Position numbers and translations under genes: made by a program
Notes under the pieces: model-generated
Databases searched by the model: none
What the model was told of the DNA's origin: nothing
The model's input: the letters and a program-made list of their open reading frames with translations, nothing else
Assembly: GCA_026982565.1 (NCBI GenBank)
Contig: JALSGV010000176.1
Span: forward strand, 1 to 43,058
Reading direction: 5' to 3'
Length of the DNA: 43,058 bases
Source: Gammaproteobacteria bacterium
GTDB lineage: Bacteria; Pseudomonadota; Gammaproteobacteria; SZUA-140
Part shown: positions 94 through 42,814 of the stretch, piece after piece
Layout: the number at the start of each line of letters is the position of its first letter
Position numbering within the stretch: the stretch's first letter is position 1

Positions 94-127
94 AGTTAAA
101 CCTGAACCCACGGATTCAGGTTTAACT
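94..127 (-). terminator. Hairpin at the polA 3' end
   Basis: A perfect 13-bp inverted repeat (AGTTAAACCTGAA at 94-106, TTCAGGTTTAACT at 115-127) with an 8-nt loop. The polA stop codon (126-128) lies in the base of the stem. There is no T tract downstream on the minus strand, so it would be a weak intrinsic terminator or an mRNA-protecting 3' hairpin rather than a classical terminator. Confidence 0.5.
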
Positions 128-2870
128 AATGGGCTTCATCCCAGTTTCTGCCCGCGCCGATTTCCACGCGGAGGGGGACCCTGAGCCGGGCTGCTTCCGT
201 CATGCAGGACGAAATCTCCCGTACATGGCTTGCCTGATCCGCTGCCGGCGCCTCAAAGACCAGTTCATCATGCACTTGCATGATCATTCTGAGGGGGGGG
301 GCATTGTCCGTTTCCCTTTTTCTGCGTTCACATTCCAGCATGGCGATCTTGATGATGTCGGCCGCCGTGCCCTGCATGGGGCCATTGATGGCCGCCCGCT
401 CGGCGTACTGGCGACGCTGATGATTGCGGCTGTTGATCTCGGGCAGGTAGAGGCGGCGCCCGAACAGGGTTTCCACGTAACCTTGTTCATGGGCGCGCTC
501 GCGCGTTTCGTCCATGAAGTCCTTTACACCCGGATAGCGCGCGAAATAGAGGTCGATATATTCCTGCGCCGCGCCGCGCTCGATACCCAGTTGGCGGCTC
601 AGCCCGAAAGCGGACATGCCGTAGATGAGTCCGAAATTGACCGCCTTGGCATGGCGCCGCTGATCCGCGGTCACCTGCTCCGGGGGCACGGCAAAGATCT
701 CGGCGGCCGTGGCCTGGTGAATGTCCTGTTCCTGCTGGAAGGCGGCCAGCAGCCGCGGGTCTTGTGAGAAGTGGGCCAGGATGCGCAATTCGATCTGGGA
801 ATAGTCCGCGGCGATGATAACGCAGCCGGGTGGCGCAATGAAGGCCTGGCGGATGCGGCGTCCATTTGCGGTTCTGACGGGAATGTTCTGCAGATTGGGA
901 TTGCTGGAGGACAGGCGCCCCGTGGCGGTGACGGCCTGATGGTAAGAGGTGTGGATGCGCCCTGTCCGCGGGTGGACCTGTTGCGGCAGCTTGTCAGTGT
1001 AGGTGGATTTCAGCTTGCTGAGGCTGCGGTAATCGAGGATCAGCTGCGGCAGGGGATAGTCCAGGGCGAGTTCCTGTAACACGGATTCCGCCGTGGAGGG
1101 TTGCCCGCCAGGGGTTTTGCGAATGACGGGCAAGTGCAGTTTGTCATAGAGAATGGCCTGGATCTGCTTGGGCGAGGAAAGGTTGAAAGGCTCGCCCGCC
1201 AGGGCGTAGGCTTGCCGGGCGAGATCTTCCATTCCTGCCGCCAGCTCTTTGCTCAGCGCCTCGAGGAGTCCTGCATCGATCAATACCCCATACTGTTCCA
1301 TCTCGGCAAGAATGGGCATCAGGGGCATTTCGATGTCTTCGAAGACCTTTTTCAGGCCCTTTTCCTTCTCGACTCTTGGCCACAGGGTTTGGTGCAACTG
1401 CAGGGTGATGTCGGCATCCTCGGCCGCGTAGGGCGCTGCCCGGTCTATTGGTATTTCATTGAAGACAAGCTGATTTTTTCCCTTTCCGGCAATATCCTCG
1501 TAGTGCACCGTGGCCCGGCCCAGGTATTGCAGGGCGAGGGAATCCATATCGTGGCGCGTGGCGTTGCTGTTGAGGACGTAGGACTCCAGCATGGTATCGA
1601 ACAGCCGCCCTTCCAGTTTTATGCCGTGGTTGCCCAGCACGGCGATGTCGTATTTGAGATTCTGCCCAACGATACAGCCCTGCTTGTTTTCCAGCAGGGG
1701 GCGCAGTTTTTCCAGTACGGTGTCCCGGGAGAGTTGGCCGGGTGCGCCGGGATAGTCGTGTCCCAGGGGGACATAGGCCGCCTCTCCCGGCGAGACAGCG
1801 AAAGAGACGCCAACGATTGCCGCATCCAGGGGAGTCAGGCTGGTGGTCTCCGTGTCGAAGGCGAACAGGCCGGACGCTGCCAGCTTTTCCAGCCAGCGCT
1901 GCAAGGCCTCTTCTGTAAGGATGGTGGCATAGTCTGCCCTGGAAGCCGCCTGAGCGGGCTTGTTTTGTTGCGCTGTATCCGTGACTGCGTCCGCGGCAGG
2001 TTTGCACAGTTCCTCCAGCCAGCGTCTGAACTCCAGTTGCTGGAAAAGGTTGCGCAGTGCTTCCAGATCTGGCTCATGGCGTTGCAGCGTCTCGGGTTCG
2101 ACATCCAGGGGGACGTCACATTTGATGGTGGCCAACTGCCGGGAGAGGGGTATCCGGTCCAGGTTGGCGCGCAGCTTTTCTCCTATTTTCCCTTTTATCT
2201 CATGGGCATGGCGAATGATTTCATCCACGGAGCCATATTCCTCGAGCCACTTGGCGGCCGTTTTGGGGCCGACGCCGGGAATGCCGGGAATATTGTCGGA
2301 GGTATCGCCGATGAGCGCCAGATAGTCGATGATCTGTTCGGGGCGCACGCCGAACTTGTCCACCACGCCCTGGGTGTCCAGAGACTTGTTGGTCATGGTG
2401 TTGATGAGGGTGATATGCCTGTCGACCAGCTGGGCCATGTCCTTGTCGCCCGTGGAAATGAGGGTGTCCATTCCGGCGGCGGTGGCCTGCCTGGCCAGGG
2501 TGCCGATGACATCGTCGGCCTCCACGCCCTCGATCACCAGGCAGGGGATGCCCATGGCCACAATGATCCGGTGCAGGGGCTCGATCTGCTCCCGCAGGTC
2601 TTCCGGCATGGGCGGGCGATGGGCCTTGTACTGGGTGAAGAGCTCGTCACGGAAGGTCTTGCCCTTGGCGTCAAAGACCACCGCCAGGCGGGCCGGCTGG
2701 TATTCCTTCAGGAGAGTGCGCAGCATATTGGTGACGCCATAGACGGCCCCCGTGGCCTGCCCTTGCGAATTGGTCAGCGGCGGCAGGGCGTGATAGGCGC
2801 GGTAGAGATAGGATGAGCCATCCACCAGCAGCAGGTCGGGATCGTTTTGTGGTTTCGTCTTCGCGTTCAT
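126..2870 (-). CDS. polA: DNA polymerase I
   Basis: Repair and Okazaki-fragment polymerase that removes RNA primers and fills gaps. From the chosen start it has 914 residues, close to the 928 of E. coli. The N-terminal 5'-3' exonuclease/FEN domain (about 12-270) begins LLLVDGSSYLYRAYHALPP. A 3'-5' exonuclease domain follows with its acidic residues present (FDTETTSL and YAAEDAD), so proofreading is probably active. The polymerase domain carries motif A (DYSQIELR, about 688), the O-helix (RRHAKAVNFGLIYG, about 737) and motif C (QVHDELVFE, about 865). The frame is open upstream to 2978, but that ATG overlaps a TATAAT promoter box. Translation therefore starts at 2939 or, better matching family N-termini, at 2870 (MNAKTKPQNDP). 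The Shine-Dalgarno signal at 2870 is poor. Transcribed divergently from the DUF2782 gene. Confidence 0.97.
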   Translation of the reverse strand: MNAKTKPQNDPDLLLVDGSSYLYRAYHALPPLTNSQGQATGAVYGVTNMLRTLLKEYQPARLAVVFDAKGKTFRDELFTQYKAHRPPMPEDLREQIEPLHRIIVAMGIPCLVIEGVEADDVIGTLARQATAAGMDTLISTGDKDMAQLVDRHITLINTMTNKSLDTQGVVDKFGVRPEQIIDYLALIGDTSDNIPGIPGVGPKTAAKWLEEYGSVDEIIRHAHEIKGKIGEKLRANLDRIPLSRQLATIKCDVPLDVEPETLQRHEPDLEALRNLFQQLEFRRWLEELCKPAADAVTDTAQQNKPAQAASRADYATILTEEALQRWLEKLAASGLFAFDTETTSLTPLDAAIVGVSFAVSPGEAAYVPLGHDYPGAPGQLSRDTVLEKLRPLLENKQGCIVGQNLKYDIAVLGNHGIKLEGRLFDTMLESYVLNSNATRHDMDSLALQYLGRATVHYEDIAGKGKNQLVFNEIPIDRAAPYAAEDADITLQLHQTLWPRVEKEKGLKKVFEDIEMPLMPILAEMEQYGVLIDAGLLEALSKELAAGMEDLARQAYALAGEPFNLSSPKQIQAILYDKLHLPVIRKTPGGQPSTAESVLQELALDYPLPQLILDYRSLSKLKSTYTDKLPQQVHPRTGRIHTSYHQAVTATGRLSSSNPNLQNIPVRTANGRRIRQAFIAPPGCVIIAADYSQIELRILAHFSQDPRLLAAFQQEQDIHQATAAEIFAVPPEQVTADQRRHAKAVNFGLIYGMSAFGLSRQLGIERGAAQEYIDLYFARYPGVKDFMDETRERAHEQGYVETLFGRRLYLPEINSRNHQRRQYAERAAINGPMQGTAADIIKIAMLECERRKRETDNAPPLRMIMQVHDELVFEAPAADQASHVREISSCMTEAARLRVPLRVEIGAGRNWDEAH

Positions 2871-2976
2871 GAGCGGGCTGTTGGGCGCGACTGTTTTGAT
2901 ATGCTGTGTCTCATGGGTCGTTTCCTGTCCTTCGGACATGCCCCTTAGAAAGGGCGGGCTAACTGCAAAGGCATCC

Positions 2977-3006
2977 ATTATACTATCGGGAAATGAACTG
3001 TCTGAA
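2977..3006 (-). promoter_or_regulatory. Predicted sigma-70 promoter of polA
   Basis: Read on the minus strand, TTCAGA (3001-3006) is followed after 18 nt by a perfect TATAAT (2977-2982). Transcription would begin near 2970, inside the longest polA frame and downstream of its first ATG, which rules that ATG out. The palindromic repeat copy at 3021-3058 ends 15 bp upstream of the -35 box. Confidence 0.6.
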
Positions 3007-3091: not shown

Positions 3092-3460
3092 ATGATGCAC
3101 GAAAAATTTTATAGGGGATCGCCGGCGGTCAGGGTATCCGCCAGGAGACGATTCCTCATATGTGTGCTGCTGGCAGCGGCTCTGTCGTCTCCTTCTCTAT
3201 CGGTTCTCGCGCAAGCCGCACCCTCGTCGCCAGGCGGTGTGGATCAATCACTGGAGCCCGAGGTCACCATCATTCATCGCGGTGAAGACCTTGTGGAGGA
3301 GTACCGAATCAATGGCCAGCTCTACATGATCAAGGTGATACCCAAGAAGGGAGTTCCCTATTTCCTGGTGGACAGTGATGGCGATGGCAGCTTCGATGTG
3401 CGTCAGAATGAACTCGACGAGGAGTTGCTCATACCCCAGTGGATCTTATTCCGCTGGTGA
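3092..3460 (+). CDS. DUF2782 family secreted protein
   Basis: A small exported protein of unknown function, 122 aa, of the DUF2782 family found next to polA in many gammaproteobacteria. A basic N-terminus is followed by a hydrophobic stretch (about 22-40, FLICVLLAAALSS) and a probable signal-peptidase site after AQA. The stretch SARRRFLI resembles a twin-arginine motif, although an ordinary Sec signal with a long basic region is equally possible. The mature domain has the family core RGEDLVEEYRINGQLYMIKV and PYFLVDSDGDGSF, and ends in ..WILFRW. The DGDGS turn could bind calcium, but this is untested. The start is the first of two adjacent ATGs; a G-run at 3080-3084 gives only a weak Shine-Dalgarno match. 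Divergent from polA. Confidence 0.85.
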   Translation: MMHEKFYRGSPAVRVSARRRFLICVLLAAALSSPSLSVLAQAAPSSPGGVDQSLEPEVTIIHRGEDLVEEYRINGQLYMIKVIPKKGVPYFLVDSDGDGSFDVRQNELDEELLIPQWILFRW

Positions 3461-3811
3461 CGGCCGTCGATCCCTGGTGCTAAGGTCCTGTTTGTTCATG
3501 GAGAAAACATATTATCCACAATTTCTGGGGATAACTTTGTGGATAAACCGTCGAAAAGGAATCCATGAAGCGGGTTTTATAGCGCCGCTTTTAGATTGTC
3601 CGTTTTTTAATCACATAAAAAATTTATATAAAACAGTTGCTTGTTGTGTTCAGCAGGGTTTTATTGGCAGGGGCTGGAAATAGAGGGCCGTTGCGGACAT
3701 AACAGGATATTATGTGCATAACATCGACAGCATGATGGGAAAATGGAAGTGTTTCATGTGAGTGAGTCCCCCGTCACGGATTTGGCCACCTTATAATACG
3801 ACGATTGAGAC
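3461..3811. other. Gene-free stretch with a DnaA-box cluster and AT-rich tract (candidate replication origin or DnaA-binding locus)
   Basis: No convincing gene in 351 bp. It contains two perfect TTATCCACA DnaA boxes in opposite orientation (plus 3512-3520, minus 3538-3546), a one-mismatch box between them (minus, TTATCCCCA, 3526-3534), and a further match to TTATNCACA (minus, TTATGCACA, 3713-3721). Between the trio and the last box is a tract that is almost only A and T (3602-3638), resembling a DNA-unwinding element. Local content and the strand change from polA to rightward genes fit an origin. It could instead be a DnaA-titrating or DnaA-regulated promoter region. dnaA, dnaN, rpmH, mnmG and mioC, usual origin neighbours, are not in the window. 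Confidence 0.5.
3792..3797 (+). promoter_or_regulatory. Predicted -10 box of the acyltransferase gene
   Basis: A perfect TATAAT lies 14 nt before the GTG start at 3812. No good -35 box is seen 16-18 nt upstream. Initiation at the usual distance would leave a leader of only about 8 nt, so this gene may be nearly leaderless; no Shine-Dalgarno motif is visible either. Confidence 0.45.
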
Positions 3812-4525
3812 GTGAGCAGGAACCGTTATGTCGCCGTGGACGGCTTGCGGGGTATCGCCGTCCTCTTGATGGTGATCTATCACTTTACCTTCGACCTGAA
3901 TTACTTCGGGCAGGTGCAGATCGATTTTTATAACGATCCCCTGTGGCTGGGTTTCCGGGCGCTCATTGTCACGATGTTTCTGGGGTTGGTGGGGATCAGC
4001 CTGCACCTGGCCACGCGCCATGGCGTCAAGCGCACACCCTTTGCGCGCCGGTTGCTGTTGTTGATATTCAATGCCGCCCTGGTCAGCGCGGGCAGCTATC
4101 TGGTGTTTCCAGAAAGCATGATCTATTTCGGGATTTTGCACTTCATCGCCGTGGCCAGCGTGGTGGGCCTGTTGATGGTGCGCTTTTACTGGCTCAATCT
4201 GCTGCTGGGCGTGGTCCTGGTGATGATGGGGTTGTTCATGCAACACCCCTTGTTCGATCATCCCATGCTGCACTGGGTCGGCCTCATGACCCATAAGCCG
4301 GTGACCGAGGATTATGTGCCCATGATTCCATGGTTTGGCGTCGTCCTGTTGGGCCTGTTTCTGGGCAGGCGCTTTTTCAGCGTTGAGCCTCTGCCGCGCC
4401 TGCTGCGCTGGCCGGGGGAACCGCGCGCCATGCAGGCCCTGACTCTGGCGGGCAGGCACAGCCTGTTGATCTATATGGTGCACCAGCCGGTTTTGATCGG
4501 CGCCATGTTTGTTCTCTGGGGCTGA
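3812..4525 (+). CDS. DUF1624/HGSNAT-type membrane acyltransferase
   Basis: Integral inner-membrane protein of 237 aa in the heparan-alpha-glucosaminide N-acetyltransferase catalytic-domain family (formerly DUF1624). Bacterial members are thought to transfer acyl groups to envelope glycans, but substrates are mostly unknown. The N-terminus has the family signature YVAVDGLRGIAVLLMVIYHF, with the conserved Asp and Arg-Gly before the first membrane segment and a His at its end. About six to seven hydrophobic segments follow, ending RHSLLIYMVHQPVLIG, another family hallmark. The start is GTG at 3812; it fits the family and follows a TATAAT box with almost no leader. The downstream gspC starts 56 bp later. 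Nothing local shows which glycan it modifies. Confidence 0.85.
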   Translation: MSRNRYVAVDGLRGIAVLLMVIYHFTFDLNYFGQVQIDFYNDPLWLGFRALIVTMFLGLVGISLHLATRHGVKRTPFARRLLLLIFNAALVSAGSYLVFPESMIYFGILHFIAVASVVGLLMVRFYWLNLLLGVVLVMMGLFMQHPLFDHPMLHWVGLMTHKPVTEDYVPMIPWFGVVLLGLFLGRRFFSVEPLPRLLRWPGEPRAMQALTLAGRHSLLIYMVHQPVLIGAMFVLWG

Positions 4526-41446: not shown

Positions 41447-42814
41447 ATGGCAATCGAATCCATCAACCCCGCCAACGGGGAAAAGCTCAAGACCATCACC
41501 CCCTGGGATGAGGAGCGGATCAGTAGTTGTCTGGCGCGGTCCGCCGCCGCGGCGCCGCAATGGGCCGCAACGCCCCTGGAGGCGCGCTGCAAAATCATGA
41601 CGCGGGTGGCGCGCCTGCTGCGGGAGCGCCGCGACACCCTGGCCCGCCTCATTACCCTGGAGATGGGCAAACTCATCACGGAGGCGCGGGCCGAAGTGGA
41701 GAAGTGCGCCCTGGTGTGCGACTACTATGTGGAGAATGGCGCCGGCTTCCTCGCCGACGAGGAAATCCCCTCCGACGCGGGGCGCAGCTATGTCTGCTTT
41801 CAGCCCCTGGGCGCGGTGCTCGCCATCATGCCCTGGAATTTCCCTTTATGGCAGGTTTTCCGCTTCGCCGCCCCGGCCCTGGTGGCCGGCAACGCGGGCC
41901 TGCTCAAGCACGCCTCCAACGTGCCCCAATGCGCCCTTGCCATCGAGACCGTGTTGCGCGACGCGGGCCTGCCTGAGGGCGTCTTCAGCACCCTGATGAT
42001 CACCGCTTCCCAGGTTGAGGGCGTCATCGCCGACCCCCGCGTCCACGCCGTCACCCTCACCGGCAGCGAGTCCGCCGGGCGGCAGGTGGCGGCCTGCGCC
42101 GGCCGTCATCTCAAGAAGACCGTGCTGGAACTGGGCGGCTCGGACCCCTTCATCGTGCTGGCGGACGCCGACCTGGAAGAGACCGTGCGCTGGGCGGTGG
42201 CCTCGCGCTTTCTCAATGCCGGCCAGAGCTGCATCGCCGCCAAGCGCTTCATCGTCGTTGAGGCCATCGCCGATGCCTTCGTGGATGCCTTCAAAACGGC
42301 GGTGGAGGCATTGAAACCCGGCGACCCCTTGCTGGAAACCACTACCCTGGCGCCCATGGCGCGCCTCGACCTGCGCGAAGAACTGCACCGCCAGGCGCAG
42401 GCCACCCTGGCCGCCGGCGCGCGCCTGGTGACGGGGGGGGAGCCCCTGCCGGGCGCGGGCGCCTTCTATTACCCCACCATCATCGACCATGTCCGGGAGG
42501 GGATGGTGGCCTGGGATGAGGAACTGTTCGGCCCCGTGGCCACGGTGATCCGCGTGGCCGATGCGGCGCAGGCCGTGGCCGTGGCCAACGGCTCGCGCTT
42601 CGGCCTCGGTGGCAGCGTGTGGACGGGGGATGCCGCGCACGGGGAAGGCATCGCCCGCCAATTGCAGTGCGGCGCCGCCTTCGTCAACGGCATGGTCAAG
42701 AGCGATCCGCGCCTGCCCTTCGGCGGCGTCAAGGCCTCGGGCTACGGGCGGGAACTGTCACGTCTCGGCATGCATGAATTCCTCAATGCCAAGACGGTGT
42801 GGATAAATCATTGA
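41447..42814 (+). CDS. NAD(P)-dependent succinate-semialdehyde dehydrogenase
   Basis: Oxidises succinate semialdehyde to succinate, the last step of GABA breakdown; related aldehydes are possible substrates. 455 aa from ATG 41447 (MAIESINPANGEKL). Aldehyde dehydrogenase landmarks: PWNFPLWQVFRFAAPALVAG, cofactor loop LTGSESAGRQVA, general base Glu in LELGGSDPF, and catalytic Cys in LNAGQSCIAAKRF; LPFGGVKASGYGREL closes the family pattern. AGGAG at 41431-41435 is 11 nt upstream; a TTG frame start at 41423 is less likely. No gabT is nearby. Its 3' end overlaps the convergent small gene by 7 bp. Confidence 0.9.
   Translation: MAIESINPANGEKLKTITPWDEERISSCLARSAAAAPQWAATPLEARCKIMTRVARLLRERRDTLARLITLEMGKLITEARAEVEKCALVCDYYVENGAGFLADEEIPSDAGRSYVCFQPLGAVLAIMPWNFPLWQVFRFAAPALVAGNAGLLKHASNVPQCALAIETVLRDAGLPEGVFSTLMITASQVEGVIADPRVHAVTLTGSESAGRQVAACAGRHLKKTVLELGGSDPFIVLADADLEETVRWAVASRFLNAGQSCIAAKRFIVVEAIADAFVDAFKTAVEALKPGDPLLETTTLAPMARLDLREELHRQAQATLAAGARLVTGGEPLPGAGAFYYPTIIDHVREGMVAWDEELFGPVATVIRVADAAQAVAVANGSRFGLGGSVWTGDAAHGEGIARQLQCGAAFVNGMVKSDPRLPFGGVKASGYGRELSRLGMHEFLNAKTVWINH

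What the first reader, a model, noticed from the sequence alone, without database searches (positions are those of the whole stretch)
3461..3811. DnaA-box cluster with AT-rich tract: candidate chromosomal origin away from dnaA
Two perfect TTATCCACA boxes in inverted orientation (3512-3520, 3538-3546) enclose a one-mismatch box (3526-3534). A fourth match to TTATNCACA is at 3713-3721, and an almost pure A/T tract lies at 3602-3638. A given 9-mer is expected about once per 131 kb on two strands by chance, so two within 35 bp is not random. Genes diverge here: polA and everything to its left run leftward, and 25 of 32 genes to the right run rightward. None of the usual origin neighbours (dnaA, dnaN, rpmH, mnmG, mioC) is in the window. 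Either an origin has an unusual neighbourhood, or this is a DnaA-titrating or DnaA-regulated site. A few lines of GC counts by eye gave no consistent skew sign.
Basis: partly seen in the sequence, partly recalled or inferred. Interest (0 to 1): 0.72.

Follow-up and report, generated by a model that had tools for sequence, protein, structure and literature searches.

The report
DnaA-recharging site (DARS-like) beside polA
The cluster is not a replication origin but a conserved non-coding switch, built like the E. coli sites that recharge the replication starter protein DnaA, and near-identical layouts turn up across most sampled Gammaproteobacteria, often beside the DNA-replication genes priA and polA.

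Summary
The boxes are real and far beyond chance, but this is not the chromosomal origin. The genome has an ordinary dnaA-oriC-dnaN on another contig. Window 3511-3724 is a conserved ~210-bp element. [quoted passage not shown] coli DARS1 and DARS2 cores (DnaA-reactivating sequences). They are followed by an IHF-type site at about +119 (the "AT-rich tract") and an inverted TTATGCACA at +201. The same genome holds one other full-length copy, upstream of priA. A profile of the element hits 350 of 369 sampled genomes of the class. In 112 examples anchored on the core alone, the IHF site falls at +119-122 in 89, and an inverted TTATNCACA box at +193-215 in 100. IHF-to-box spacings fall into groups about one helical turn apart. 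Best reading: an IHF-bent DARS that swaps ADP for ATP on DnaA. That activity is inferred from anatomy; no biochemistry was possible. Known DARS loci lie at uvrB and mutH. The polA/priA location and the phased distal box, without a conserved Fis site, were not found in the papers I could search. It is a new variant of a known kind.

The parts
3511..3724 (+). Whole DARS-like element
   Evidence: Full-length match to profile R1 (positions 2-217), 85.3 bits, E 5.8e-24 genome-wide. The window copy is one of the 37 training sequences, so this score is partly by construction; the priA copy in the same genome (87.7 bits) was not in training.
3512..3520 (+). DnaA box I, TTATCCACA
   Evidence: Exact match; same place as DARS1 box I (L035:2108) and DARS2 box I (L036:1636)
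3526..3534 (-). DnaA box II, TTATCCCCA, 14 bp from box I and opposed to it
   Evidence: 1 mismatch; spacing and orientation identical to E. coli DARS1/DARS2
3538..3546 (-). DnaA box III, TTATCCACA, 26 bp from box I
   Evidence: Exact match; spacing identical to E. coli DARS1/DARS2
3602..3643 (+). A/T tract ending in an IHF-type site (TATAAAACAGTTG at 3627-3639, 1 mismatch to WATCAANNNNTTR; AAACAGTTGCTTG at 3631-3643, 2 mismatches, in the register of the relatives)
   Evidence: consensus-type sites at +119-122 in 89 of 112 core-anchored elements
3713..3721 (-). Distal DnaA box TTATGCACA at +201
   Evidence: Exact inverted TTATNCACA at +193-215 in 100 of 112 core-anchored elements, against 8 exact boxes in all other flanking positions of the same set
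126..2978 (-). polA (DNA polymerase I), neighbour
   Evidence: PF00476 E 3e-163; TIGR00593 above cut-off
3092..3460 (+). DUF2782 protein, neighbour immediately upstream of the element
   Evidence: PF11191 E 3e-32
3812..4525 (+). HGSNAT_cat membrane acyltransferase, neighbour downstream; not conserved at this place in all relatives
   Evidence: PF07786 E 9e-71; other downstream genes in relatives

Best explanation
The element is a DARS-type DnaA-reactivating sequence. ADP-DnaA binds boxes I-III, with the box I and box II protomers facing head to head. IHF binds at about +120 and bends the DNA, bringing a DnaA bound to the distal TTATGCACA box (+201) back against the core. The strained ADP-DnaA assembly loses ADP, apo-DnaA leaves and picks up ATP, and the ATP-DnaA level rises for initiation at the dnaA-dnaN oriC. 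Shown here: box geometry, IHF-site and distal-box conservation, spacing groups about one helical turn apart, presence in most of the class, a second copy at priA, and presence of dnaA, hda, ihfA and fis. Inferred: DnaA and IHF binding, ADP-release activity, and the looping.
For: Core spacing 0/14/26 with orientation + - - is identical in the window, DARS1 and DARS2. A review states that the spacing is the same in both DARS and that box I is opposed to II and III (PMC5742627). Published deletion primers flank the DARS2 core I used (PMC4585315). An IHF-type site lies at +119-122 in most elements, against +109 in DARS2. Profile R1 gives DARS1 34.1 bits and DARS2 16.6 bits through the IHF position. 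There are two full-length copies in the genome, next best 18.5 bits, and 350 of 369 genomes of the class match. IHF-to-distal-box spacings are 72-74, 81-87 and 93-95 bp, with none between. Hda and IHF-alpha are above their curated cut-offs, Fis above its cut-off.
Against: No biochemistry. Box I is degenerate in some relatives that keep the rest (L007, L016, L019, L024, L029), although box I is needed in E. coli. No Fis-site enrichment near the distal box, whereas DARS2 needs Fis. ihfB was not found in the roughly 91%-complete draft. polA-linked copies lie 76-79 kb from dnaA in the two closed genomes examined, whereas E. coli DARS lie 1.0-1.5 Mb away. The window's own IHF site is a weak match (1-2 mismatches). 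The DARS2 score of 16.6 bits is close to that of the oriC (15.0) and datA (12.2) fragments, so DARS2 kinship rests on geometry, not on the profile score.
Confidence: 0.75

Rival explanations
1. datA-like site: IHF-bent DNA that gathers ATP-DnaA and promotes ATP hydrolysis, turning DnaA off.
For: IHF between two groups of DnaA boxes, as in datA. polA- and several priA-linked copies lie near the origin, as datA does more than DARS.
Against: E. coli datA (L037) has box 2 in + orientation, its IHF site in - orientation at +65, and no opposed I/II pair with a third box at +26. It scores only 12 bits with R1, on the wrong part.
Confidence: 0.12
2. Passive DnaA titration site with no catalytic role.
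For: Several good boxes in non-coding DNA, present in two or more copies per genome.
Against: Titration needs no fixed box spacing, no IHF site at a fixed offset and no phased distal box.
Confidence: 0.06
3. DnaA-controlled promoter of a neighbouring gene (priA, or the downstream acyltransferase).
For: Many copies lie just upstream of priA with the core nearest the gene.
Against: At polA the element lies downstream of DUF2782, and the following gene differs between relatives (HGSNAT, gspC, a phosphotransferase). No sigma-70-like promoter was found in the element. Forty-five of 113 copies had neither locus as neighbour.
Confidence: 0.05
4. A chromosomal origin.
For: DnaA boxes plus an A/T-rich tract.
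Against: Ordinary dnaA-oriC-dnaN elsewhere in the genome; two copies per genome; in closed genomes the copies lie 76 kb to 1.6 Mb from dnaA.
Confidence: 0.02

Closest known systems
E. coli DARS2 (rppH-mutH region, L036:1636)
   Same: Three DnaA boxes with the same spacing and orientation; IHF sites near +93 to +121; a further DnaA-box region near +211
   Different: Lies beside polA (and priA), not mutH. The distal box is in the opposite orientation and reads TTATRCACA. No conserved Fis consensus, whereas Fis sites FBS2-3 are required in DARS2.
E. coli DARS1 (bioD-uvrB, L035:2108)
   Same: Same core; the better profile match of the two (34 bits, positions 2-152)
   Different: DARS1 works without IHF or Fis and lacks the distal inverted TTATRCACA at +193-215
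E. coli datA (downstream of glyVXY, L037)
   Same: DnaA boxes plus one IHF site, non-coding
   Different: Different box orientation, IHF orientation and spacing; opposite biochemical role
oriC of dnaA-dnaN type (this genome, C172)
   Same: Perfect DnaA boxes in A/T-rich non-coding DNA
   Different: Boxes spaced 17/18 bp, no such IHF/distal-box layout, lies between dnaA and dnaN

Membership tests
DARS (DARS1/DARS2 type) | Core of three DnaA boxes at fixed spacing, box I opposed to II and III | tested here: met
   0/14/26, + - -, identical to both E. coli DARS (PMC5742627)
DARS (DARS1/DARS2 type) | Catalyses ADP release from ADP-DnaA and raises ATP-DnaA | not testable with these tools
   Needs biochemistry
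DARS2 | IHF-binding site(s) roughly 100-120 bp into the element | tested here: met
   Site type at +119-122 in 89 of 112 elements; weak in the window itself (+115, 1 mismatch; +119, 2 mismatches). Binding not tested.
DARS2 | Fis sites FBS2-3 required for activity | tested here: inconclusive
   No enrichment of the Fis consensus at any position around the distal box beyond what the box letters themselves give; the motif is degenerate. A fis gene is present.
DARS2 | Located at mutH; DARS1 at bioD-uvrB | tested here: not met
   Neighbours are polA/DUF2782; the second copy is upstream of priA. Position is a feature of E. coli and V. cholerae, not of the mechanism.
datA | DnaA boxes 2, 3, 7 around one IHF site in the E. 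coli layout | tested here: not met
   Layout differs; 12 bits, partial
Chromosomal origin | Single main site per chromosome, with dnaA/dnaN-type neighbourhood or skew minimum | tested here: not met
   Origin-type locus at C172; two copies of the element; no skew minimum at 3.5 kb (skew is weak in this genome)

The most novel reading that the evidence does not exclude
The common form of DARS in Gammaproteobacteria is not E. coli's but this three-part one: core, IHF site at +120, and an inverted TTATRCACA DnaA box held in helical phase by an IHF bend. It usually sits at priA or polA, often near the origin, with DnaA at the distal box doing what Fis does in DARS2. E. coli DARS1 and DARS2 would be derived forms.
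Probability: 0.45. Interest if true: 0.65.

Novelty: new variant of a known kind. Interest (0 to 1): 0.52.

Why it matters
DARS is known in detail only from E. coli and close relatives. A near class-wide element with a sharper layout offers a sequence rule for finding DnaA-reactivating sites across Gammaproteobacteria. It gives a direct test of how IHF bending couples to ADP release, by shifting the distal box by half or whole turns. It also raises the question of why some copies sit close to the origin, when E. coli studies suggest that DARS1 close to oriC may be a fitness disadvantage (PMC5010248).

Tried and rejected
Origin: rejected (dnaA-dnaN locus elsewhere, two or more copies, no skew minimum). 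GC skew around dnaA on C172 is weak and only mildly supports oriC there. Plasmid records: no match. RNA gene: no Rfam or tRNA hit in the window. datA: wrong layout. Fis site near the distal box: no enrichment. Rayleigh test of the IHF-to-distal spacing: resultant broad (about 0.82 at 10.5-11.5 bp) because one group dominates, so helical phasing rests on the three separated groups, not on that test. E. coli MG1655 as a whole-genome control for the profile: not held, so only L035-L037 were scored. The second E. coli candidate core at L036:1952 was set aside because the published DARS2 primers flank 1636.

Full report
Observation. Twelve sites with up to one mismatch occur in the window against 4.8 expected. 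The trio at 3512-3546 has one mismatch in 27 positions; the best fixed-spacing trio in 300 Markov simulations had seven. One correction: the cluster is not at the point where genes diverge. polA (126-2978, -) and DUF2782 (3092-3460, +) diverge at about 3.0 kb, and the cluster follows DUF2782 and precedes a rightward HGSNAT-type gene at 3812.

Not an origin. The genome is a 2.64-Mb draft in 214 contigs. dnaA is on contig C172 with rnpA upstream. Three perfect boxes and one 1-mismatch box lie in an A/T-rich gap downstream of dnaA, before the dnaN start. Skew in the window is positive on both sides of the cluster. The element has two full-length copies in the genome.

What it is. In E. coli K-12 I located DARS1 between bioD and uvrB (L035) and DARS2 between rppH and mutH (L036). 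The DARS1 core starts at L035:2108 (TTATCCACT / TTATCCACA / TAATACACA). The DARS2 core starts at L036:1636, and published deletion primers flank exactly that stretch (PMC4585315). Both have boxes at 0 (+), 14 (-) and 26 (-), as the window does. A review gives identical spacing and opposed box I as the shared structural feature of DARS1 and DARS2 (PMC5742627). datA has a different layout.

Conservation. In 15 of 18 same-family DUF2782 loci, including the window, the boxes recur downstream of DUF2782, with an IHF-type site near +119 and an inverted TTATGCACA or TTATACACA at +191-207. Named relatives from 80 genome contigs (order Thiohalobacterales and other sulfur-oxidising and environmental Gammaproteobacteria) show it too. 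A sequence-only profile of 37 elements (R1) matched 350 of 369 genomes of the class at E <= 0.01; by my reading of that table about 290 reach E <= 1e-8. In a phylum-wide sample 115 of 200 matched at E <= 1e-6, some with many copies. In the window's genome the two full-length hits score 87.7 (C179:6925-7142, upstream of priA, not a training sequence) and 85.3 bits (window, a training sequence); the next is 18.5 bits and partial. DARS1 scores 34.1 bits and DARS2 16.6 bits, both aligning through the IHF position. oriC scores 15.0 and datA 12.2, on fragments, so the profile alone does not separate DARS2 from these; geometry does.

Anatomy in 113 fetched elements. I re-anchored each on the core alone. 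All 113 had the trio at fixed spacing with up to 4 mismatches. Of 112 with flanks, 89 carry an IHF consensus (up to 1 mismatch), always in the same orientation, at +119-122. One hundred carry an exact inverted TTATNCACA at +193-215. Only 8 exact boxes occurred in all other flanking positions. The distal box is TTATGCACA (67), TTATACACA (30) or TTATTCACA (4), never TTATCCACA. IHF-to-box distances are 72-74 (7 elements), 81-87 (70) or 93-95 (4), with nothing between; the first, partly overlapping set showed 71-75 and 82-86. The steps are close to one turn of DNA. Caveats: the loci were collected with the full profile, and related genomes are not independent. No Fis consensus is enriched around the distal box beyond what the box letters give.

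Position. Of the 113, 52 lie beside priA (3 more beside hemJ only), 13 beside polA/DUF2782/HGSNAT, and 45 elsewhere. In two closed or nearly closed genomes with both, the polA and priA copies lie on opposite sides of dnaA, 76-137 kb away. Other copies lie about 1 Mb away, as the E. coli DARS do. Literature held here places DARS-like sites at uvrB and mutH in E. coli and V. cholerae (PMC6090056) and says DARS-like sequences occur in many proteobacteria (PMC10380432). I found no report of the polA/priA sites or of the phased distal box; the original 2009 DARS paper and most subscription papers could not be searched.

Mechanism. Inferred by analogy: ADP-DnaA assembles head to head on boxes I and II, IHF bends the DNA, and DnaA at the distal box contacts the core complex and helps expel ADP. 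The toolkit is present: DnaA, Hda and IHF-alpha above curated cut-offs, Fis above cut-off. ihfB was not found in the roughly 91%-complete draft. The position of the distal box matches the box V/Fis region of DARS2 (+211), suggesting DnaA there stands in for Fis; this is a proposal, not a result. In some relatives box I is degenerate while the rest is kept, which the E. coli model does not explain.

Verdict. A real, conserved DARS-type element, not an origin; a new variant of a known kind.

Noticed in passing
L160:6926-7142 (contig C179 of the window's genome): Second full-length copy of the element between hemJ and priA, scoring slightly better than the window copy.
   Followed up: yes
   Followed up: no
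L181 (G537:C1:5094449 and 5094913) and L220 (G322:C167:7515 and 7884): Two elements in tandem about 0.4 kb apart, in the first case upstream of priA.
   Followed up: no
113 fetched elements: The distal box has G or A at position 5 in 97 of 101 cases and never C, although the core boxes favour C. The letters GTGYA in it match a Fis half-site, but no second half-site is conserved.
   Followed up: partly
L007, L016, L019, L024, L029: Box I is degenerate while boxes II and III, the IHF site and the distal box are kept.
   Followed up: partly
42798-42806: A third perfect TTATCCACA in the window (besides boxes I and III), isolated, near its right end.
   Followed up: no
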